64,000 nt of DNA, from positions 985,501 through 1,049,500 of the forward strand of contig JAQGDQ010000029.1 in NCBI GenBank assembly GCA_030141605.1, read 5' to 3'. This DNA comes from Tubiluchus corallicola. Taxonomy: Eukaryota; Priapulida; Priapulimorpha; Priapulimorphida; Tubiluchidae. The translations under genes and the position numbers were made by a program. The notes beneath the pieces are model-generated. The model ran no database searches, had not been told where the DNA came from, and saw only the letters and a list, made by a program, of their open reading frames with translations. Every line of letters begins with the position of its first letter. Position 1 is the stretch's first letter. This document shows positions 15,089-59,780 of the stretch, in pieces.

Positions 15089-18000
15089 GTAATGAGGAGC
15101 AGAAGAAGGCACTAAAACATTGCAGTATTCTTGGACACAACTCCACACACAACCTTGGGATCAATTTATAATTTTAAAGTTCAGAATGTTTCGTGTTATT
15201 ACTGAAACACAATATCGTACTATTCTTACATGTAAATTGACATACTACTTTTGCATCGTGTTTGCATTCCTGATATGCATTCTTTAAGAGGCGCCATTAT
15301 GTTTAATGAGGACCCACTAATGATTGTATAATAGAATTTATGTTGACTTCATATAGGTTTTGCGTTACAAGCCGCTAGTCGTAACCAAATGCAGCTTTAT
15401 TGTAATTTTGTTCTAGCTCACTTACAAAGTTTGTGGACATCATACGTTTTTGTCACAATTATAAAGTCAAGTCAAATCGACACCCCATTTTTGTATGACT
15501 TGCATAATGCTCTTAAGTAATTTTGTCTTTAAATAAGACAGGGAGGTGTGAGAAACACTCACACGTGTGCACTAGGAACATTACAATAGAAATCACTGTG
15601 GGAACAAATAATTAATAACCGTGTCGCCTCTGCTGTGCTTTTGACGCCTTGTCATTGCTATTACTGTTGAAGATATACCTACTGCTGAAGAAATATGTGG
15701 TGTTACGTAATAATGATACCACGTGATGTTATGTAATATCATCTTAATAACGACATTCTTTTTTTAATTACAGAAAGCAAGGAATGGATGGGCAGCTCTA
15801 CTGTGAGTCCCACGAATCCATGGCACCTCTGGAGAAAGAGCAGAAGAATGAGAAGAAAACAGGACAGGTAAAGGCAATTTAGTTTTAGTTTCTTTCTCTT
15901 AACGTTAAATTAATCATGCTAGTTTAGTTATAACAAGATTATGAGGGTGTAGCTACGCCATCAGAGAACACAAACACAAAATTGCTTAAATGTGAAGATT
16001 TCAAACGTTTCTAATCGTCATTGTTTCATACCGTGAATTCATTATTTCAGATTTCTAATAACTGCTTCAACAGTGTATTCATGATAAGGAAAGAGTGATG
16101 ATTTAAGAGAGATGAAACGTCATAACTGGCCGAGTTTTGGTTGTTGATGTTTTCTCGGATCACTCACACTGTTGAGCTTAATTTCCAGTTGACGTGAAAC
16201 TCGCTAATACGATATTTTCTCAGAAAACTATATTAAAAATTTCTTTCTTGCTAAAATTGTCTCATTTAAACAAAGGACACTCTAACCAGGGCTGCTTAAA
16301 TTTTCTGTTTAATGTGACGGGATTCCTTCAAAGTCTTTGGGAATTTGCCGTGTTTAGGGCGAGATTTCTGAGATGGGACTGTAGATATCCACGCCCATCG
16401 GTCTTCAAATGTTTAATAAACTGGCAATGAACGAATTGAGCACATAGCACATGCCACAGTAATATTTTTTGTTTGTTTAGCTGTCTTTTTGGTTAGTAAA
16501 ATACCTTCGCGAGAAGACACCGACTTGTTGGCTGGTAATTAATGACCTTTCTGCACCTTACACTGATTCTTTATGAGCTAGCTAACTAATCAGCGCTAAT
16601 AAATAGTATATGCGTATAATTATTTTCCTCTGTGTATAATGCGCATAGGTGTTCGTGCAGTTTTACCGGATGGCTTATACATTTCTATACGGCTGAAACT
16701 TCCTTTGGGCGATTTTAATGAGATCTACTCCAGGTGGTAACTAATATACTGAAACGACAAGCCGCAATTTATGTATTGAGGTTAAACCTTATAGAAGCAT
16801 TGTCCAAGAGCGCACTAGTACGCATTTATTGCTCTACTTTGTCAACTTTGCGCGTGCTTTAATGTACGTGGCAAGGCTACTCACAATTTTAGGGAGGTGC
16901 TAAAACTCATAACGAGAATAAAATGTTCGGAGTAAAAGTAGTTAAAAGACTCTTTTTTAAAACAAATTATGGTATCTGCATACGAAGCAAAACGTAACGA
17001 TATGAAACTTTACGCTTTTGCAAGGCTTTGATCCTACTTAAAGCTTATTGATACATAAAATCGCCAAACAATTCCAAATAAGTCAACAAATAAAGAGCCT
17101 TGACTCGTTGTTCACAGTTGATATCACAGGAGAAGTTGCGTGGCCTTGCTGGAAGTTGCTGCACGTAAAAATGTGTCTAAAGTTGACGTATCTACTAAAA
17201 ATGTGTCTAATGAGCATGACCGCTGCAGACTTTCACAGATCTTATGCATGTTAAGTTATCCAAACGCAGACAGGCGTAACGAAAATGCAAGTCCACTTGC
17301 AAATGTCAGTGTTCTATGCTTTAGTGTTGCATCCAAAAAACAAAATGTTTGTGTTTTCTAATTTGTGTCAGTCAGTTATCAGTAATTGGTCACCCCTGTT
17401 AAGGTCTCAATGTTTATGTGTCTAATTGTGTTTATTGTTTAATAAAAAACTCTGTACATCGACCTTTTTGCAGTCACATGCAATATAATGAACATTTGCA
17501 CTTTCATTTTTAAATGGATGAAAATATCGTTTTGTTTTGTCTACTCCTTAATGACTGGTCTGTTAGTTAAGACTTTATTAATCATTACTTTTGTATTTAT
17601 AGTTTGTATCGGTAGTAATTTACCATTTTGCCGGGTTACTTACGTATGGTATAGTTTTGTTTTGCATTTTTGCCTTCATGTACTCATTTTTCAACAAATG
17701 GCATGCAATTACTTACACATTGTATGTCCATTATTAATATAAATCACTTTTTAATAGTTGTCTATGGCTTTACCTTAAGATATTTAAGTGATCTTTTCTT
17801 TATGTTCATTTCTAAAATTGAACTTCATTAAAGACTCGAACTTGGAACTGCTGGAGGTCCATGACTTTTATCTAGCCGCTGACTTTCAGTTAAAACCGAA
17901 GGAGACGAATTAAAATTTATTTCTATTCTAAAGTGGACATTGACGTCATAGCTTCGTCCGTTTGTCAGTCGAATGACAGGAATAGCATTGAATTCGCTGA

Positions 18001-21000: not shown

Positions 21001-24000
21001 TGCACTAGCAGCCCACGCACATTGTTTATTAAACTGTCAATAAGAAATTGTGTGTATTTATCTTACGGAAAAGCCAATTTAACACTGATTCACAAGTTTT
21101 GCTAAATGTCAACAACATTAGGTTATATTAGCCTGTTTACCGTTAATATATGTGATCGCTTAAGCGTGTAACTGATTCATTTTCGTTTAGTATGCCTATC
21201 GTGGGAGGTGGGTGTTTGCGGTTATGGGCACGTTGTAGCGATCATTATTTACGGGAGAGCCTTGATTTTTTATTGGTGTGTAACACTTGAGTATTATGCT
21301 GTTTTGTAAGGTTTTTGTGATGTATGGACTTGCGGTCATGCAGTTCTGGTTATTATTCGTCTTCGATTACCTAAATAGGCGTTTCTTTATGTGTCTGATG
21401 ATGTATATATTCATTACTATGTAAATTAGCAATAAGTGAGATGTGCAAAGTCGATATATTTCTTATGCGTAATATTATTGTAAGCATCGTTTAAATTTTC
21501 GATTAAAATTTGTCGTATAAACAGTCATGACAAGACGCTTTTGTGATGCGATTGAATATAGCGCGCATTTCAAGATTTTGTGGTTAGAAACTCTCATAAC
21601 GCGATTATTAAAAGCGCTACATTGCGTGAGTTTTAATGATCCGTGAGTTTATGCCCGAAGGTTTCTTTTTTCTATCATCAAGGCTGTTATGGTCATACGT
21701 TAATTTCACAATTATTTCGTAAGAATGCTCCGCCAAGGTTTATGGCTTGAGGAATGTTGAAAGGGACACGCAATTTTTAAATTTGTTACTACATTCTTAG
21801 AAATTGGTTTTTATCATGAGCTATTATTCAGATGACCGAAAAGTTACTAATGATAATGTTGTTAAAGTTTGTGGTCGACAACAGGGCATCACCAGAAGCG
21901 AAGATTGTCAAATTTTTCTACCAAGCCCCTTGTATGGAACTACTTTATTTTAAGAAGGTCACTAGAAATTCACTTTAGATGCACTAATTAGTTACTGCAC
22001 CGCTTCATGTCTTGAGCATTATACTTTAACCCTGGCGTAAATTATTTACACGGATTATTGCGTTTTACAGATTAGTACAGTCTGTAAATAAAATATTTTA
22101 TTTACGTAGTCAGTGTCATTTTAAAATATTAAAATATTAGATTGGTAAACATGATAATTTCGTGTATGCTGTACGCAGAGTTAAATGCGGACATTTTTGT
22201 CAATGTTAACAGTTATAATCTTAAACGACCGCGCGTTTTTCTGGTTGTTTATCGCCAAAAAATTCGCTTATGACTCAGCTCTGCTTCACTAAAAAATTAA
22301 GCATATAAAACCTAACTGCCAAGAAGTCGGGCTAAGTATATCGCCTGATCACTTTGCTATTCAAGCACTGGGTACTTGCATGGAAACTAAAGTTCAACAG
22401 TATTGATTATTAGAATCATATAACAACAACGGCGACACCGGCGGCGGCAATGGCAGTAGCAACAGCAACAACAACAATTATAATAATTACAGCAGCAGCA
22501 CAGAATCTTTAACCGGAAATCATTATCGCTTTAATTATTCGATGATTTATTAGCTGATTTAGTTTGTTGGCGTGTAGTTGTCTGACAGACTGGTTGCCTG
22601 CCTAATAGGCTGGTTAACTTATTGGCAGACCGAGATAATGATTCACGGAATATCACGGCGAATGTCTAATTAAGTAGTTAAAGTATATTCTATCTTAACC
22701 AGTGTGATAAATAAATGGCTTTTGACAAGTGTCCGACGTTAAAACATTCTGTGTTGCAGGGAGAGGAATTGTTTGACATACTAGAGCGAATGCAAGGTAG
22801 TCGTCTAGATGAACAAAGATGCAACCTTCCGGCATCCTTCTTCCAGGTAAGTTTACTAACTGTTTAACTTACCTGTATCAGCTTGCTGACAGAAGTTAAA
22901 GTAAAAATATTGTACATATCGTTATACAGCCATGATCAGGGGTTGACAAATTGTGCTCGTAAAAAAACCCATATTTTTCACAAATAATCATTAATATCAG
23001 TTTTAAGCTTCATAAGGTTATTTCAGAAATCATGATTTCAGATAAACCATTTCACTCATTCACTACCCTCACAAAAACGAATATTATGAAGTTGAAGGTA
23101 CTCTTTGAAAATTTTATTTGATGTCCTTGCTCTTTGAATAAAGAATTTGATTCAGAACTTTCTGACAAGAATTTTTTTCCTGGTCTGTGTCTTATAAACT
23201 TCAGTAAGATGAGCTCATTGTAGCAAATAAAATAAAATTTCGTAACAGAAAACCAACAGGTAGCACTAGCAACTGCAATTAGAAATTTTATATTATGTCC
23301 GTCAGAATAGGCTTATGTGAAAATGAAAGATTCGCTGTGTTTCAACGCAAACCTGGAGCAGAACAATTACATCACTGCCCTGGACTTTCACATTAGTAAT
23401 CTAATCCGCAGGATATATACGTTGCAGTAACTTGGGAGCCATTTAAAGTTAATGTCTCCCACGGGCGTACAAATATTGCCAACTCTGTCTCCCCAGTACT
23501 CCCCTGTGTAGAATACATCCTAATGGAATATGTGCGGATGACACTCGAGTGCCTGTTTTAAGGCTGGTCACGATTTTCTGAACTAAAACAATTATGGTTA
23601 GCGAGAAGCTTATGCTGGGAGCTCAGGAAACCACGTTTATTTTCCAGTTAAGCCATTCCGAGTGAAATGGTTCTGCTGTCATTCCTGGCCTCCCTCAATC
23701 CTATTACACGAAAAGAACCAATTTGAGGAGGCAGCGATTTAAGTGTGCTTTTTTCTGGTCATTATCCGAGAATTTGCATGGAGATATACATGAATCAGCA
23801 GAGGAAAATGATGGCAATAAGCCTTTTCACAGTTTCGTTGTGTGCACGCACAATTGCTGCAGATCAAGGGCTAAATGTACCACAGCAACGCGTCTTAACT
23901 ACAGCCGTCACGTGACACGTGGGTAAAACAAAGCCGTCTACTGCATCAGTTCAATAACTTCAGTTGTAGATGCATTAAGCTGTGCGTAGAGTGATTTACT

Positions 24001-27000
24001 AGCAGGATCTTGCTTGGGATCGAGAAAAAAAGAACTAAGTAAGGTTTTAGCTAGCTGTTAAAACTGCCACTATTACAGTAGCTAGGGCTGCGGGGCGTTG
24101 TCGAGTGTACACAAATGAGTTGTCTCGCACACTTAACCTTTTACCTTTTCACGATCATCATCATCGATTGCTGGAATTGTGAAAAGGCTTATTGAAAACA
24201 TGTATGCTGTCTTGTAATTTGAAGGCAAAAATAGACCTATGTGCGTTCAAATGGACAAAAATTTCAATGTTAAAATTATTTTCTTTGTTCTGAGTCTTAA
24301 AAAATCAGCTGATGTTTTTATTCCGGCATGTCTGCATGCACAGTATTCGCTTAATTTTTTACCATGAAATGGTTTTTGACGAAAATAGCGCATAATAATG
24401 AAAAAAGAGAGTCAAAATGAAACTGAAAAATGTTCAAAGTAAAAGAAGTGACATTTTGACCTCGTTTTTTGGACAAGCAATCTTGAAAAGTGAGGTTTCT
24501 TTCGACAGGCTTATTCATCATTGTCACTCAAACTGAGTTGAGAAAGTTCACGTGTAAAAAAAGCAAAAGGTCGTAACTGGTCACACAACTATATAATTTC
24601 ACACCTGAGGGCTACACGCAATTGACACAAGTTAGGGTATTTGAAAAACAATTAAGATTTTGGGTCAGCCCAATTTTGGAATCAATAGTTACCCTAATAA
24701 CTAATTATCGCCCTTAAATATGGATTTGTTTTGTGGAAATTGTGTAAATGATTTTCCAGTCAATGGCCATGCGCGTTATATAATACCATTTGTGCCATTT
24801 TTACGGTACCATTTTTCCCTGACACCAGACACATTAAGGTACACCTGGTGCTAGCTAGTAATGTTAGTTCAGTATTCATGTTAGTAGATGGCAATACCAG
24901 AGGTGTTTAATGCGGCGACAGAGATATATTTATCGAGGAATGAAGCATTATAAGCTGGTGCCGCTTTAGTTGTTAGCTAATTAACCATTTTTCATGTCTT
25001 TATCCATTTTGCTGTCTCTTTTTTCTTCCTGCTGCTTTTGCTCAGTCTTCGGAGTTTGTAGAGATGGTGCTGAAGTTTCAATGTCATAGACTAGACGAAC
25101 AGAGATGTCATTTGCCATTTCTTAGCGACCTGGTACTTTTCATTCCCTTTAAAATACAAAGATATTGAGTTAAAATTGAAAAAAAGAATTTGGATAGATA
25201 AGCACGTTTTAGCAATCCATTGTTTTTCATTAGAGGAGACGCTGTGCATGAGTTCATTTCTGCACAATATTTTTATTTGTGTGTTTGTCTAGCTATAGTT
25301 TGTGTATTTCGTGCCTAGAGTAATTTTTTCATGCGATTTACAGTGGGGAAAACTCATTCATTTACATAGACTGCTCTGAATCTATTTTAGCATTTTCGTA
25401 GATACCGGGACTTGGTCAATGCATTGATTAGCTTTCTCAGGTCTTTGTTTTATTCAACTGCGAAAAACGCAGCTAAAAGCACGCTAGCGTGAACTTTTGG
25501 CTTTTTTAGTTTTAACGGCAAGACTTTTCAGTGTGCACTAGGTTCTCGTGCAGTGCGAACAGTCTCTGTTTTGCAATGTAAATCGTGTGTGCGTTTATTC
25601 TCTTATTTATTTAAAATAACAAATCCCTTTTGTAATGTAAACCTGTAGTGATAAATACAATTCCGTGTATGATATGTCAGTTAATTTGTAGGTGCGAAGC
25701 TAATCCCAGTTTCAAAATTACGAATTGCAGATAAATGAACATGGATTTTTTTTTTTGAGAGTAAATCGTTATCACTCGTATAAATAGTAACGTGGTATAA
25801 ATAGTCATATAAATAAATCAATACAAACTTTTGGAACTTGATTTGATTTTAGCCAGGAACCATTGCTGATCGATAACAAAATCCAAAACTTAGCACTGTA
25901 GTTTCTTAGTTGTGGTAAATCGACTATCCGTGAAATATCTTTTGTTCAAATCCAGATCTTTTCAATGTTTGGTCCCAAAATTATAAGTGTTGTAGTGATG
26001 AGATGAATAAAACTGCTGGGTTTATGTTGTATAGAATTGTGTGTGCTTTGGTGGTTGCGAGGATGTTATTGTCTTCTGTAGTAGCATGCCATATGCGATT
26101 TTATTCCTAATTATTTTTTAACATTTTAATACTTAAACGTTTGTGGAACAAACATATGTACGTGTTTGAGCATGTGAATTTGTGGTCTGTATAACATGGA
26201 ATGTTAAGCTATAATGTGACTTCGGCAGGAAAAACAATGGAATCAGAGTTCCCACATTTGCCTTGTTTTCGTAAAGGATTGTCTCTGTGATGCCATTTTA
26301 GTTATCAAAGAATTGTAATGTTGTTTAACTGTAATTGATTTACTCAGGGCTGAAGTTTATACAGTTAATCTCGACTTTCAAAAGCATGTCTTTCAATTTT
26401 ACCATTCACTTTTTAGCAGAACGAGAAAAAGCCTGTTGCTCCCCGACGAAAGAAAGAGAGTCCAATGGCGACCACTGTCAGGGAGATCACGCAGAAGCCT
26501 GGGCCATATCCTATGATTATCCTTCCTCAGTCAGGCGGTTACTGGGCCGATGGATTAGATTCGGAGAGCAGTGGCGATTTTGGTAGTGGCCAAGTGGCAG
26601 CGCCATCAGCAAACACGGAGCAGTACAAGATCGAGATGAATGAGACTGCAAGGTGCTATCGGAATCTCTTCCTTGGGAAAGTAAGTCTTTACTAATACAA
26701 ATTTCTGCAGACAGAAAAACAGGCAATCTTACCACATAGTTTGATGTCTTCTGTAAATGGTCATGTCATGTGTCATGCATATTGTCAGGTACATGTGAGA
26801 ATGCCACCTGAGTCTAAGCATTGCGTAGAATTGCATGAATCTTAAGTGATCAAGGTCTGAGTGATATGAACTTACCAAGCAATGTGCATGCATTTTTCTG
26901 AGGACTTCATACTATTATGAAAACATAGTTCCATTTTATGTATGCTGTGTAAGTATTCAGTGAGGTCGTTATGACATCTGCCCCCATCTTATCCCATTAA

Positions 27001-30000
27001 ATGTAGAAAGGTCAGTCAGCGCCTCATTAGGATTGTGGCTGTGTAGCCAGATAATGGATTTATCTTGCAGCATGCTCAGTGAGTGATGTGACAGATTGCA
27101 AAACGTACAAAGCTTTAGTTTTTATTTTTGTAACATTTGTCACTTTTTCAATATCTAAAACATTTCTCGAGTGCTAAGCTCATTACAAAAAAACAAGTTA
27201 CCTAAAGCATGGTCCGTACATGATTGACGAAACCAAAGTAGTTCATGTAAATTGAATTTAAAAAAACCACTTGCCTCTGAAGTCATCCAAAATTACCCCG
27301 TTACTATTGTCCACAGTAAGAGTAATTTATGCTCATGAACTTTTACTCTTAAGTGGCATTTACGTAGCATAGGGATGCGTTTTCCTATGCGGAACAGCCT
27401 GCGGAAAAAATCTATAGGAAATAACTGCAGAAAAACAATAACGCATACCCAGGCTGCATAAACGGGTGCATTAAAAACGACATTAACCGATTCTATCTAT
27501 TTCGCACCCCCAAAAACCACACATATCACCATGCTACATAAACGCCACTTTACACTTATAAATTTGTAAAGACAGAGAAGGCTGAAGAACATTCTTAGTA
27601 CCTACATAATGACAAAATCTGATCAATGTTTTGTGGTTAAAGGAAAAACAGTCGTCATACTTTTTACTTGGAGGCTTTATCTATACAATATTAGAATAAA
27701 CTTGAAGATCCTATCATGCATTGACAAGGTATAATAAATGCTTTATAATTAAAAGAAAAAATACTCATCATAAAACCTTTTTTTACTATCATCTTTATTA
27801 TCAGTGTGTTCTTGATGTCTGTTTCTTGTTAATTATAAATGTTTTCTAGATTTATGGTGTAACACTGTAACCCTTATCCTTGCAATGTACATGCGCGTTT
27901 TCGTCTCTGTATCTGATTTATATGCATTTATGGTTTTCAATGCTGTTTATTATCTAGATTAAGATTTATAATGGGGCGCACATGACTGTGCTGCAGCTGT
28001 GCGACGAAAAGTTTATGTGCTGTTTTTCACGTTTTCCAGGAGCATTTTAACTTCTTCGCATTTGACGAAAATGTTGGGCCTGTTGTGTTGTCGGTAAAAA
28101 CGGAGAACTATTCCTCACAGGAGCAGACACGTCTCATAGTCAGGTATATGACAACCCAAGCAGATGGTTTTAAGATATGCCTACAAGTGAATTTTCATTA
28201 AGCAATAATTTAGCTTTGTGAAGAAATTTATTTATTTTGAATTCTGGTTCAGTTAAAGCTTTAAAAACAGTCAACTTGAACATTTCAAAAGAGTTTAACT
28301 TGCACTTGCATCTTTGGAGTTCTTGATGAAGCAGAAGTGTTGTTTGAATTTTTGCATCATACAAATTACTTGTTTTTTCACGGGTTCTATGAATGGTAAT
28401 TGATTCATTCAACCTTTAATTGTAATATTATATTCATCTGGATTTGAAAGGTTCCTTTAGAACTAAAATTTAAAGAAGTCAAAACTAATTTCAGGACGAA
28501 GCAGAGCACAGTTCATGAGTTAGTCATGTCAAGAACTTTGCAAGACTGTCCCAGTCCAGCTAGAATGGCCAAGCTTCTCTGTGACCAAATAACAACAGAG
28601 AAATTTAGCCCGGTACTTTTTCCAAAAGTAAGTAACCATTTGCTTGTTTGTCAAATATGCATCCAGTATATCTATATAATAACTTTGTAGGCTTTAAACG
28701 TTTAGTCTTACCAGAAAAGCTTTTCAGCTATTGTGACTATCTTAAATGCATGAAGAATTAGGTCAAACTTTGCTAAACTTGCAAAAGACAAAATATATTT
28801 AATGATTGTTCTATGCACAACTCTCCTACTTGTATTTTTTGAGCCATATTGAAATCTCATTTCTATGTTTTTTCAGGGCTCAGAGATGATCTGTGCATAT
28901 GATGAACACGTCCTAGTCAATACATTCAAATTCGGTATCTGCTACCAGCGGTTTGGGCAGGTAACGGAGGAGGAATTATTTGGAAACATAAACCACAGTC
29001 CAGCCATGGAAGAGTTTCTCCAGATGCTTGGTCAACGGGTCACTTTAAAAGACTTCAAAGGGTAATCATCATCTTACGAAGCAAATCTTGTTTCGATTTC
29101 ATTCTGTTTCATCACTAAAAGCAGATGCTAATTGATATTCTGCATAAGTTATGCAAACAGAAGCCACTAGATGAGGAAAAATTTTCCCACAGACAAAAGG
29201 GATGTTTTGAATAGTGCAGATAATAACTGGAATTCAAATTCAATACGTCAGACTAAATGGCTTTGTGAATGCACTCTGTTTTATCGTCATTTATTGATCA
29301 TTTGATGATATTTTGGGTAGATTATCTGAACATAAATTGTGCGTGCAGGAAAGCAAGTTTTAATTGCATGGTACCAACTGTGCAAAATTTTTTAGCAGCA
29401 GTTGAGTAGTTAATCTATATTAGAATGATAGTCTTTTCTATAGTATTGTGATTGCACGTGTATGTAGTATGGGAAAAGAGCAAATGCTCGCGGCATAATA
29501 TTGGCCTAATATTTGTGGGCAGGCTATTGTACCACTTACACATGCAAAATATATTTAAAAACACCAGAAGCTTAGTTTTAATTGGCTTTGCTACAAATTT
29601 ATGTATTAGTATTCAAAGAAATTGTTAAAGTCGTCAGTTAGTGTTTTTGTCTGTTATCTTTTACAATGGTGATGGCTATGGTTTTGGCAGTTGTTGCTGC
29701 CTAGACTACTTTCAATACATCAATTTAAACTATTCATTCTGTGTAAAATGTTAGCTGCAGTGTGATGTTTTGGATTTTTTAAATACACTGCTTTTTTCAT
29801 TTATATACCTTGAGACAGTATGGTACAGTCGCACATAGAATACTGTATGCTGCATTCTATTAACCATGTGGCGCTTTGTTTACAGGTATCGAGGAGGTCT
29901 TGATATTGTCCATGGACAGACCGGTGTCGAATCAGTTTACAAAAAATTTAAAGATCGAGAAATCATGTTCCACGTTTCAACACTTCTACCGTACAGTGAG

Positions 30001-33000
30001 GGTGATGCCCAGCAAGTAAGTAGATGAATGCTTTTATTTATGTGATATTAAATTTATGGATTTTTTTTTAAAAACTGTGACATGGTGTCCTGTTTTAGTT
30101 AAATTAGTATATGGACCATGCCATGCAGAACCAGACATAAATGAAAAGTGCTCACAGGACTTGTAAAAGACATTGTATTGCTTCAGTGATAAATTCTGTC
30201 AAATCACAAACTCTGCATTGTATTTTATAGCATTTTTAGTAAAAAGTTGATAATAGTAACAAATACACAACATAATTAACCGTGATCATACTACTTTATC
30301 AAGATTGAACTAGTATAAATCACATGGAATTTAATTTTTGTGAGGAGGGAAAAACCGTAGCACCTGTATTTTTGGTACTTTTGCAATGTAAATCATTAAT
30401 ACTGTAGTAGGTTTTATGCAGCTTTTCAAAAGAAGTACTGAGCTGCTGAGTATTTTTTGTATGATGATTTTGACAAACTGTTCCTGCTTTCATATATATA
30501 TATATATACTACTTTGTAGCATAAGAGAGCTTCAGGCACTTCGAATGCTAATTATTGTTTCATACTGATTTTATTTTTTGCAGTTACAAAGAAAGCGGCA
30601 CATAGGAAATGATATTGTCTCTATCATCTTCCAAGAAACAAACACGCCTTTCATCCCAGACATGATCGCTTCGAATTTCCTTCATGCATACATCATCATA
30701 CAGCCTCTCTCACCAAATACTGATAACACCATGTATCGGGTATGAGTTTCTTTGCACACATTTTTCTTTACCAACTAGTAAAATTGATTCAAAGTTATTG
30801 AACATATACTTGTATTATAGTTAGAAAAAAAGCAAGCAAATAATAGAGAGCAGCAGTCAGACATAAGCTAGACATTAGCTAGTATTTTACATTGTGCACA
30901 GCATCCTTACCTGTAGCTTTCTTAAGTATTTTTGACAACTTAAGTATTTCTTAAGTTTTAGTAACTGTTGTTATATGCATTAATGTAGGTATCAGTAACA
31001 GCTAGGGAAGACGTTCCATTTTTTGGACCAACGTTACCAAACCCGCCTATATTTCGCAAGGGTCCGGAGTTTCACGATTGGCTGTTGACCAAGCTGATCA
31101 ATGCCGAGAATGCCAGTTACAAAGCAGAACGTTTTGCTAAGTTGGAGGTAAGACTGTAAAATACAGTTTCTATTCTGTTGTATGGTAAATAGACCGAATG
31201 TTAGCTAGCCTATTCTCTAAAAATGTACCCGCATTTGTGATTTACTTGACTGATCTTTATCATAACAACTTTTTGTCACCATTAGCAAAATTTTCCAGCC
31301 TCTCGGTACTGTAGTTTTGGCAATGTCTCATACTGATTAGGCCAATTTAGATTTAACATGGTACTGTATAATATATTATTGATGCCAAATGAGTTTACGA
31401 ACTAAACTGGGCTTCAAGAAGAATTAATAATTATTAAACTTGAAATTGTGATGGGATGTGATCTATATTTACCTACTAGTAAAAAAATTAACTAACCTTC
31501 ATAAAATCGTTAAACTTAAAAGGGGTGAATTTTTCAGTTTGAAATAATCATTTGCACTACTATAATTTTTTATTTAGGAAAGAACGCGATCATCACTTCT
31601 TGATTCTTTGTTTGTGGACCTCCAACAGAAAACCGAAGAGATTTTTGCACAGCCCAATGCCCCTACGCCAAAATCTGAAAGCAGTAATTCATTTTTCGAC
31701 ACGTTACGAAAAGCTATTGGTACACGGATGACAACAGCGCGCAGCCAATCAGTAGACAGCAGCCTCTCATCAGCAGCCAACAGAAAATCAATGAATTTGG
31801 ATGCTTTGAATTCAAATGCTGAATCAGCTGTCTTTTCTGTACGTTTCCCATCATTTTGCTCACTAAATTTTAACACTGAAATTTGTTGTGTTGAAAATTG
31901 AAAGTGGATATTTTTTATCCAAATTTTTAACCATATAATATATTTTTGTTTCATGAATGGCATTGTCTCTTTTTCAGAATTCCAACAATAAGAGCAGCAG
32001 TCTGAAGCAATCATCAAATTCAAATGAAAATTCAAAGCGAAAAGAAAATGGTCAAGTTTCTTCTGATTCATCGTCTGGTACAGTAAAAATGTGAGTACGA
32101 GATCTTATTTTATCATATTTGTTTAATTTGATACACTTTCCTTAGAATTATAATTTCTATGATAATGATATCATTTATAGAATTTCTGATTTCAACAGTA
32201 ACTTTTTATAGCTTTCTTCGCCTCTGTGGCTAAACATCGTAGACAATCGGGTGTGGTTAAATTTCAGGGTACATCGAATGAGTAACAAAGTACTCGTGTT
32301 GTAAATTTATACATTTATTTCAATTTGCAGGAAGCCACGAAATTCTACTGAAAGCACTAGTAGTAGTGTGACACCAGCCTCTTACAAGACGGCGTCGCAG
32401 CCCAATTCACCTGTTTCTAGTCCTGAGACCAACACTGCACCAAAAACTAGGTAAAAATTACTAGTAGCAATAATTTCAGCAATTAAAGTGTTGCTTTACC
32501 AATTTTGGTTGGCAGTAGTGTCTGCTTGGAGATCATGATTTTATGTAAATTTTCCTTAAATTTGATTTAAACTTGTCTAATGTGTATGGATGTTTAGATT
32601 GCCTGTTGCCTAGAGTCTAGACAGTTGTCTGTGCAACTCAACACATTTCAGTGTTTCTAAATCTAAACTAAAATGCTTTTTTTAATTCGAGCTTAGAATG
32701 ATTTTCCAATTTTTTTGTTGTGATAACGTTTTTTTTTTAATTTTGTTTCACATAATACAAACTAAAGAAAATTACCTTAAAGCCATTTCTTTATTAATTT
32801 TAAATAATGAAATAATTATTATTTAATAGTTATTTATTAGTAAGTTGTTAGCCATTTATTTAAACAAACTGGGATTAGTCAGGCAAATTATTGACTGTTG
32901 GATATAAAAAATGTTGGAATAAGAAAACAAGTGTCAATTCTAGCAGAGCCAATAATGTGTTTGTAATAATTTCAGCAGAACTTTGGTAAATCTCAAAAAT

Positions 33001-57701: not shown

Positions 57702-59054
57702 TTAATAAGTAGGGACGAATTGACCTTCAAGGATAAGTTGACGCCAAATTTTACCTTCTGGATACTGATAATTTTCAAAAACTTCGGGTTTTAACTCAGT
57801 GGAGTAACCTGGCTTTGTGGGTAACACGTAGGTAGCATTGAATATCCTAACAGGATTGACAAAGTGTTCATGAAATTCTTCAATGTACTCAATAAGATGG
57901 TTCTCCATAGAACCATTAACATAGATATGGTTAAAGAATGCCATATGTTGTGCCATTTCGCCTAGCCCTACTCCTCCAGTGTGAGGACAGACTGGAATAT
58001 TAAATTTCTTTGCCATCAGCAAAACAGCAATAATTTCATTAGGCCCACCAAGACGTGCTGGGTCAATCTGGCAAAACTGCATTGCATTGGTCTGCAAAAA
58101 TTGCTTGAACATAATCCGATTATGGCAGTGTTCTCCAGTAGCAACTCCAATTCCATGTGGACTCAGAGCTTCAGCAATGGCTGCATGACCTAGAATATCA
58201 TCAGGGGATGTAGGTTCCTCAATCCACAAAGGTAGGAATTCTACCAGTGATTGCATGTGTTGTTTTGCCTCTTCAACATCCCACTTCTGATTTGCATCGA
58301 CCATTAATGTATTTTCTTCCCCTATCACCTTTCGCATGATCCCTACTCTGCGATGGTCATCTTTTATGTTGCGGCCTACTTTTATCTTAAACTTCGTCCA
58401 TCCAGCTGTCAATGCTTCTCGAGTCAACTGTTCTATCTTTTCTTCACTATGGCAACGCCACCCAACTGATGTAGTATAAGCCGTGTATCCATTTTTGGAC
58501 AAGTATTTAATCCTACACACTTTTGATGTCTCATTTTGCTTTAATATGTGAAGAGCTTCTTCAGGACAGAGAACGTCAGATATGTATCGAAAGTCAATTA
58601 AAGATACAATTTGTTCTGGACTCATATCAGCCAGCAGCTTCCACACTGGCTTATTCTCCATTTTGCCCCATAAATCCCACAAAGCATTCACAATGGCGGC
58701 TGTGGCTAGATGTATAACCCCTTTTTCAGGGCCAGTCCATCTCATTTGGCTGTCACTAGTAAGCTTCCTCCAAAAAGAAGCAAAGTTGGAGTAAATGTTA
58801 TTAACATCCTCTCCACGGAAAAGATACATCATTGACTCTATGGCTCTCACCACAATGAGTGTGCCGTCGCCAAGGGTAAATGTAAGACCACACCCTGTTT
58901 CCCCACTACTTGTAGTTAATAAAAGGTACGCGCATGACATCACATCAGTGTGAATAGCATCTGACATGCCATCCAGCCAAGTGGGAAATCTAATGTCAAA
59001 AACTGAAGCATCCTTTATAATACTAGACTTTGATACTTTATGTGATGAAGACAT
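57702..59054 (-). CDS. ENOSF1: ENOSF1-like L-fuconate dehydratase (enolase superfamily), single exon
   Basis: It is predicted to dehydrate L-fuconate to 2-keto-3-deoxy-L-fuconate, using Mg2+; the human protein is called mitochondrial enolase superfamily member 1. The 450 residues match the family length (443 in human). The N-terminal capping domain is about 10-150, with WTGPEKG and LATAAIVNALWDLW. The barrel holds the catalytic set: KFKIKVG (Lys221, Lys223), MVDANQKWD (Asp253, Asn255), WIEEPTSPDD (Glu279), GVATGEHCHNR (Glu308), QIDPARLGG (Asp331), CPHTGGVGLGE (His358) and GSMEN (Glu384). All expected catalytic residues are present. I chose the ATG at 59054; the frame stays open upstream to 59210 but has no ATG. 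The whole coding region has no intron, unlike the many-exon vertebrate gene. It shares orientation with NADK, 1.8 kb away. Confidence 0.97.
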   Translation of the reverse strand: MSSSHKVSKSSIIKDASVFDIRFPTWLDGMSDAIHTDVMSCAYLLLTTSSGETGCGLTFTLGDGTLIVVRAIESMMYLFRGEDVNNIYSNFASFWRKLTSDSQMRWTGPEKGVIHLATAAIVNALWDLWGKMENKPVWKLLADMSPEQIVSLIDFRYISDVLCPEEALHILKQNETSKVCRIKYLSKNGYTAYTTSVGWRCHSEEKIEQLTREALTAGWTKFKIKVGRNIKDDHRRVGIMRKVIGEENTLMVDANQKWDVEEAKQHMQSLVEFLPLWIEEPTSPDDILGHAAIAEALSPHGIGVATGEHCHNRIMFKQFLQTNAMQFCQIDPARLGGPNEIIAVLLMAKKFNIPVCPHTGGVGLGEMAQHMAFFNHIYVNGSMENHLIEYIEEFHEHFVNPVRIFNATYVLPTKPGYSTELKPEVFENYQYPEGKIWRQLILEGQFVPTY

Positions 59055-59136
59055 GATAATCAGGCTGCTGTAAATTATCTTAGACTTGTTGAGTAGACTA
59101 CGTATCAAAGTGCGTGATCGTTGTCGAAAACTGTTA

Positions 59137-59144
59137 TATTTATA
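59137..59144 (-). promoter_or_regulatory. Putative TATA box of the ENOSF1-like gene
   Basis: TATAAATA on the minus strand sits 83-90 nt before the chosen ATG. A start about 30 nt downstream, near 59113, would leave a 5' leader of roughly 58 nt. This supports the ATG at 59054 over any upstream extension. Confidence 0.45.
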
Positions 59145-59780
59145 ACCTTTCAGTAGAGAAATGATAATCCTGATTGCTACTGTAATTGATTGAAAACTCC
59201 GAGTCCAGGATCAAGTCAGCTTGAAGTCAAAAAACTGTAAAATACAGAAAAATCACACTAAGTAAAATGCACGTCTTTTCTTTTAGGGGAGTATTAACTA
59301 ATGAAACAGCTTGTTTGTGCATGTAAACTCTAATTGCACGAAAGAAAACACATAAAATCACCGTAACTCACCAAAAAATATTTGTTTTTGTAATAAAATC
59401 ACCTTATACGAGAAATTATAATGTAGTTATTGTCATCATTCATAGTGATGAGTATATTAAATTTTTTAGTTCTTGACGCTAGATTGGTCATTTTGATGTT
59501 GTTAGTGTACGGGACTAAACCTACTTACTTGAGGCTATTTGACACTCATTAAACGCAAAATTTCTGGATACTGAATATCCACATTACATTTACCCTAAAC
59601 ACAACACTTCACAATTTAAGAAGTATTTCACAACATTATGTGCTTCAGGTTCAAATACCCCTGAAGTTGGGCGTAAATTCGAGGCGCCATCAATAGAAAA
59701 GCAATTAGAGCCAAAATACGCATCTGATTGGCTACTACTAACTCATACACCCTTTGTTTAGAAGAACGTTACTATAAAGT

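What the first reader, a model, noticed from the sequence alone, without database searches (positions are those of the whole stretch)
22760..25132. Two same-length, same-phase GoLoco exons in a RapGAP gene
Both exons are exactly 87 nt, phase 0-0, and keep the RLDEQRC core with the Gi-contacting Gln-Arg, yet share only 11 of 29 residues. Known RAP1GAP proteins have a single GoLoco, as far as I recall. Including both would make a protein able to bind two G-alpha-i molecules; choosing one would switch G-protein preference. The first copy looks RAP1GAP-like and the second RAP1GAP2-like, so one invertebrate gene may encode by splicing what vertebrates split between paralogs. The second exon has a weak donor (gtactt).
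Basis: partly seen in the sequence, partly recalled or inferred. Interest (0 to 1): 0.78.

Follow-up and report, generated by a model that had tools for sequence, protein, structure and literature searches.

The report
RapGAP gene with two GoLoco exons
An animal gene for a Rap-switching-off protein carries two old, differently evolved versions of the small exon that lets it grip G-alpha proteins, so splicing could choose how the protein listens to G-protein signals; which version is used is not yet shown.

Summary
Exons C (22760-22846) and D (25046-25132) are each 87 nt, phase 0-0, with AG/GT borders and 11 of 29 residues identical. Both pass Pfam's GoLoco cut-off (39.9 and 33.6 bits against 25.1), two of seven such matches found in the 343.5-Mb genome. 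They precede a RAP1GAP-type catalytic domain (220 bits). Synonymous sites between C and D look saturated (pS 0.75, only 18 sites) while the GoLoco core is conserved (pN 0.35), and a neutral simulation never kept RLDEQRC. D is therefore probably an old, selected exon. All four splice combinations (C, D, both, neither) stay open, so frame does not enforce exclusivity. My best reading is alternative, mostly one-at-a-time use, tuning which G-alpha or nucleotide state the RapGAP answers to. That is inferred; no transcripts or related genomes were available. The 'vertebrate paralogs in one gene' idea is not supported: D matches RAP1GAP2 at 10 of 23 and RAP1GAP at 11 of 23 (human letters recalled), and this genome holds a second RAP1GAP-type gene with one degenerate GoLoco. 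New variant of a known kind.

The parts
15774..15867 (+). candidate upstream coding exon (X), donor phase 0, [31 protein letters not shown]; looks like the end of a LIM domain
   Evidence: best-scoring upstream candidate with a phase-0 donor (12.7 bits, next 4.7); one match in the genome; no Pfam match alone; LIM only when joined to upstream exons; no counterpart recognised in the C543 gene
22760..22846 (+). exon C, GoLoco copy 1, 87 nt, phase 0-0, [29 protein letters not shown]
25046..25132 (+). exon D, GoLoco copy 2, 87 nt, phase 0-0, [29 protein letters not shown], weak donor GTACTT
26417..26680 (+). exon E, phase 0 at both ends; tandem acceptor TAGCAG allows a start at 26417 or 26420
   Evidence: sequence; borders; tblastn with recalled human proteins
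28040..31838 (+). exons F 28040-28143, G 28495-28627, H 28877-29061, I 29886-30015, J 30584-30739, K 30989-31147, L 31578-31838: catalytic region (L donor inferred, not verified; gene continues downstream, not modelled)
   Evidence: PF02145 220.2 bits on the joined exons H to K plus the start of L

Best explanation
This is a RAP1GAP-family gene whose single GoLoco exon was duplicated in tandem long ago. Both copies still encode a full GoLoco motif and are used alternatively, mostly one at a time, giving RapGAP isoforms with different G-alpha coupling. C is the default, RAP1GAP-like version (strongest of the 10 donors scored). D is a conditional version (weak donor, strong pyrimidine tract). 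The G-alpha-gripping core RLDEQRC is kept, while the flanking helix, the two residues between Gln and Arg (GS against CH) and the C-terminal tail (ASFFQ against FLSDL) have diverged, which would change affinity or choice of G-alpha or of its GDP/GTP state, and so where and when Rap1 is switched off. Shown: anatomy, frame, motif membership, signature of age and selection. Inferred: use of D in mRNA, exclusivity, altered coupling.
For: Both exons pass the GoLoco cut-off, lie 2,199 nt apart with equal length and phase, and precede a Rap_GAP domain. C against D: pS 0.749 and pN 0.441 overall, 0.781 and 0.346 in codons 2-24; 7 of the 11 shared residues are written with different codons. Neutral simulation to the same DNA identity gave no stop plus at least 11 identical residues in 0.17% and 0.08% of runs, and kept RLDEQRC in 0 of 20,000. 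The four tested combinations are open. In human Rap1GAP1 a truncation of the one GoLoco switches preference from G-alpha-o-GDP to G-alpha-o-GTP, so this spot is a known control point (PMC12329598; abstract, passages, sections 7 and 12). [quoted passage not shown]); that paper selects exclusive pairs, so it gives no base rate.
Against: No transcript or related genome was available. D's codon score is poor (-5.2, rank 18 of 28 stop-free AG-87-GT segments, against rank 3 for C). D's donor is weak; 12% of the intronic GTs score as well. Nothing found enforces exclusivity: frame allows both, the intron is long, and among the top four matches listed per intron pair none exceeds 13 nt exact or 14 nt with one mismatch. 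Only 18 synonymous sites underlie pS. D is as close to a C1349 GoLoco (10 of 23) as nearly to C (11 of 23).
Confidence: 0.55

Rival explanations
1. Both exons are included together, giving a RapGAP with two GoLoco motifs in tandem that could hold two G-alpha subunits.
For: X-C-D-E is open, 552 aa as modelled; Pfam finds two GoLoco stretches in the joined 58 aa (59.8 bits); multi-GoLoco proteins exist (GPSM2, two motifs in 4jhr).
Against: Core spacing would be 29 residues against 34 between the two GPSM2 motifs in 4jhr, leaving less room for a second G-alpha (inference); human Rap1GAP1 isoforms are described with one motif (PMC12329598); unequal donors suggest unequal use.
Confidence: 0.2
2. 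D is a declining or rarely used exon: selected in the past, now skipped or near loss.
For: Weak donor, poor codon score, 0 of the last 5 residues shared with C.
Against: Open frame, AG/GT borders, strong pyrimidine tract, GoLoco score over the cut-off; retention after apparent synonymous saturation.
Confidence: 0.15
3. D serves as a start exon: with a non-coding leader, translation begins at its Met7 (GAG-ATG-G context), giving a truncated GoLoco like human Rap1GAP1a, which prefers G-alpha-o-GTP, while C makes the full, GDP-preferring motif.
For: D has Met where the recalled human Rap1GAP1a begins (MIEKMQ), with G at -3 and +4; C has Ile there. Human truncation switches nucleotide preference (PMC12329598, sections 7 and 12).
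Against: D has a good acceptor, so it looks internal; the best upstream candidate exon is coding and joins it in frame; Met at this place also occurs in the recalled full-length human motifs.
Confidence: 0.06

Closest known systems
Human RAP1GAP (Rap1GAP1a/1b isoforms)
   Same: Rap_GAP domain with N-terminal GoLoco; exons E-L 52% identical over 419 aligned positions to letters recalled from memory; isoforms differ at the GoLoco (PMC12329598)
   Different: human isoforms truncate or extend one motif; here there are two complete homologous GoLoco exons
Human RAP1GAP2
   Same: Rap_GAP domain, 51% over 468 aligned positions to recalled letters; D shares the SSEF start
   Different: the recalled motif lacks the QRC end that D keeps; D is no closer to it than to RAP1GAP
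GPSM2/LGN multi-GoLoco proteins
   Same: several GoLoco motifs in one protein; the only solved structures listed for C and for D at E up to 10
   Different: motifs are together in one protein, 34 residues apart in 4jhr; no Rap_GAP domain (recalled)
Tandem duplicated, mutually exclusive exons (FYN in PMC9741552 section 12; SNAP25 in the listing)
   Same: adjacent homologous exons of equal length and phase with a conserved core
   Different: exclusivity not shown here; no GoLoco example in the papers listed
Second RAP1GAP-type gene of this genome (contig C543)
   Same: exons F-K 58-81% identical to the window gene, same exon order; GoLoco-like exon phase 0-0
   Different: one GoLoco-like exon found, 108 nt, conserved Gln lost, 12.2 bits, below the cut-off

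Membership tests
GoLoco motif | match to the Pfam GoLoco model over its cut-off | tested here: met
   C 39.9 and D 33.6 bits, cut-off 25.1
GoLoco motif | Gln and the D/E-Q-R triad with the Arg finger | tested here: met
   Q..RLDEQRC in both; Arg-finger role from PMC12329598 section 12; role of the first Gln recalled
GoLoco motif | binds G-alpha-i/o, inhibits GDP release | not testable with these tools
   needs protein
RAP1GAP family | Rap_GAP catalytic domain | tested here: met
   PF02145 220.2 bits, profile positions 2-184 of 185
RAP1GAP family | catalytic Asn in [10 protein letters not shown] | tested here: met
   [15 protein letters not shown] in exon J; that this Asn is catalytic is recalled
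RAP1GAP family | GoLoco N-terminal to the GAP domain | tested here: met
   order and phase
Mutually exclusive tandem exons | adjacent homologous exons, same length and phase | tested here: met
Mutually exclusive tandem exons | one of the two, not both, in mature mRNA | not testable with these tools
   no RNA data; frame allows both
Mutually exclusive tandem exons | a mechanism enforcing exclusivity (frame, short intron, paired introns) | tested here: inconclusive
   frame neutral, 2,199-nt intron; pairing looked for in one genome only, top four matches per pair, at most 13 nt exact or 14 nt with one mismatch

The most novel reading that the evidence does not exclude
An invertebrate RapGAP uses an ancient tandem GoLoco exon pair as a splice switch that rewires a Rap1 off-signal between G-alpha partners or between G-alpha-GDP and G-alpha-GTP, doing by exon choice what human Rap1GAP1 does by truncating its single motif.
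Probability: 0.3. Interest if true: 0.7.

Novelty: new variant of a known kind. Interest (0 to 1): 0.45.

Why it matters
Rap1GAP links heterotrimeric G proteins to Rap1, and which G-alpha state it answers to has been disputed (PMC12329598). Two natural, diverged GoLoco versions on one catalytic body would be a ready-made test of which GoLoco residues set G-alpha and nucleotide preference.

Tried and rejected
Vertebrate-paralog reading: rejected on identity counts and on the second gene in this genome. Third GoLoco copy: of the 14 matches listed only these two lie on the window's contig (weak matches can be missed). Second copy of D for allele evidence: one match only, itself. Intron repeats or pairing as an exclusivity device: nothing beyond 13 nt exact or 14 nt with one mismatch among the top four per pair. 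Mitochondrial COX1 to place the animal group: no match, which does not show absence. N-terminal RKRS..FG motif (recalled from human): no convincing match upstream in the window. Papers on duplicated GoLoco exons: none seen in the listings (1 paper each; 10 of 10; 30 of 202; 12 of 35; 8 of 8; 10 of 668); most were seen as title and start of abstract only, and the library is open-licence only. In some searches some exon borders were first guessed wrong; a further exon 'M' was dropped. C613 was fetched as a possible paralog; its matches to the recalled human proteins are weaker and I did not pursue it. Other Rap_GAP contigs (C859, C1056, C1360, C2211) were not examined.

Full report
What is there. 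The window (contig C2123:985501-1049500 of a 343.5-Mb genome) holds a RAP1GAP-type gene on the + strand. Exon C (22760-22846) and exon D (25046-25132) are both 87 nt, phase 0-0, bounded by AG and GT, and encode 29 residues each, 11 identical. Exon E (26417 or 26420 to 26680) follows in phase 0, and exons F-L (28040-31838) continue without a stop. PF02145 scores 220.2 bits over the joined exons H to K plus the start of L. L's donor and the exons beyond were not verified.

Is it more than chance? Length and borders alone are weak: 218 AG-87-GT segments lie on this strand, 28 of them stop-free. The motif is decisive: GoLoco 39.9 (C) and 33.6 bits (D), cut-off 25.1. The genome search gave 14 matches at E up to 10, 7 over the cut-off: three on C663, two on C1349, two here. 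D with its flanks has one match in the genome, itself.

Age and selection. Between C and D, pS is 0.749 on 18.25 synonymous sites and pN 0.441 on 68.75; for codons 2-24 they are 0.781 and 0.346. Seven of the 11 shared residues are written with different codons. Evolving either exon neutrally to the same DNA identity left no stop in 18% of runs, no stop plus at least 11 identical residues in 0.17% (from C) and 0.08% (from D), and RLDEQRC intact in 0 of 20,000. The test takes one exon as the ancestor and is small, but a long-neutral D is unlikely. Against: D's codon score is poor, rank 18 of 28, while C ranks 3 (1,052 training codons in the like script).

Splicing. C has the strongest of 10 donors (-11.8 kcal/mol with U1), D -4.1, with only L's unverified donor weaker; 12% of intronic GTs score as well as D's donor. 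D's pyrimidine fraction (0.82) ties for highest, C's is 0.53. X-C-E, X-D-E, X-C-D-E and X-E are all open, so splicing could also drop the GoLoco altogether. Nothing found enforces one-at-a-time use: frame is neutral, the intron between is 2,199 nt, and the best matches listed between flanking introns are 13 nt exact or 14 nt with one mismatch.

What it probably does. In human Rap1GAP1, the full GoLoco prefers G-alpha-o-GDP and a version lacking seven N-terminal residues prefers G-alpha-o-GTP, with effects on Rap1 at the membrane; how the truncation does this the authors call unclear (PMC12329598; abstract, passages, sections 7 and 12). So this exon position is a real control point. C and D keep the Arg-finger core and differ around it, in the helix and in the tail. 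I infer alternative use with different G-alpha coupling. A double GoLoco is possible in frame but its cores would be 29 residues apart, against 34 between the two GPSM2 motifs in 4jhr.

The paralog question. D is not RAP1GAP2-like: over 23 aligned residues D matches recalled RAP1GAP at 11, recalled RAP1GAP2 at 10, exon C at 11 and a C1349 GoLoco at 10. The genome has a second RAP1GAP-type gene on C543 (minus strand) with the same exon order; its GoLoco-like exon, C543:314846-314953, is 108 nt, phase 0-0, TDALFDAISRLSAERLDDQRHELYPRQLKPQTLEIE, 12.2 bits, below the cut-off. The eight aligned pieces of the two genes are 44-81% identical. Loss of one tandem exon in one gene copy is known elsewhere (PGM1/PGM5, FYN relatives; PMC9741552 section 12), but nothing here shows that C543 ever had two.

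The N-terminus. The best upstream candidate exon is 15774-15867. It resembles the end of a LIM domain. With a small exon at contig 984775-984816 and the end of a 191-codon open frame whose donor is at 938499, the splice-consistent join scores 24.0 bits for LIM, cut-off 22.9. Against: it needs an intron of 46,276 nt; none of the 115 LIM matches of the genome search lies on this contig; the pieces alone gave no Pfam match; no counterpart of exon X was recognised at C543. Tentative. It would make a LIM-GoLoco-RapGAP protein; no listing names one, titles and abstract starts only.

Other papers: PMC2447299 (abstract passage) reports that the C. elegans Rap1Gap orthologue interacts with a G-alpha, so the link exists in invertebrates. 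PMC2954821 and PMC4199127 were seen as passages only and add nothing specific.

Verdict. A real, probably functional tandem duplication of the GoLoco exon in a RAP1GAP-type gene; alternative use likely, consequence untested. New variant of a known kind, interest 0.45.

Noticed in passing
window 15774-15867; contig C2123 984775-984816 (L008) and 937924-938498 (L012, open frame ending at the donor): Three stretches on the same strand that, joined at consistent splice sites, give a LIM domain just over the Pfam cut-off upstream of the GoLoco exons: a possible LIM-GoLoco-RapGAP protein. Tentative: 46-kb intron, no LIM match listed on this contig.
   Followed up: partly
L005 3346-3453 (-) and L004-L005 (contig C543): Second RAP1GAP-type gene with one degenerate GoLoco exon that lost the conserved Gln; a LIM-like Cys/His stretch lies upstream at C543:337403 (-), no Pfam match.
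   Followed up: partly
window 26414-26419: Tandem acceptor TAGCAG before exon E, which would add or drop one Gln after the GoLoco.
   Followed up: no
window 57702-59210 (-): Stop-to-stop open frame of 502 aa that looks like an enolase-superfamily protein of the ENOSF1 kind in one exon (name recalled, not tested).
   Followed up: no
L002 (contig C1349) and L001 (contig C663): Two further multi-GoLoco loci, probably GPSM-like (not tested); one C1349 motif shares QCHRL with exon D.
   Followed up: no
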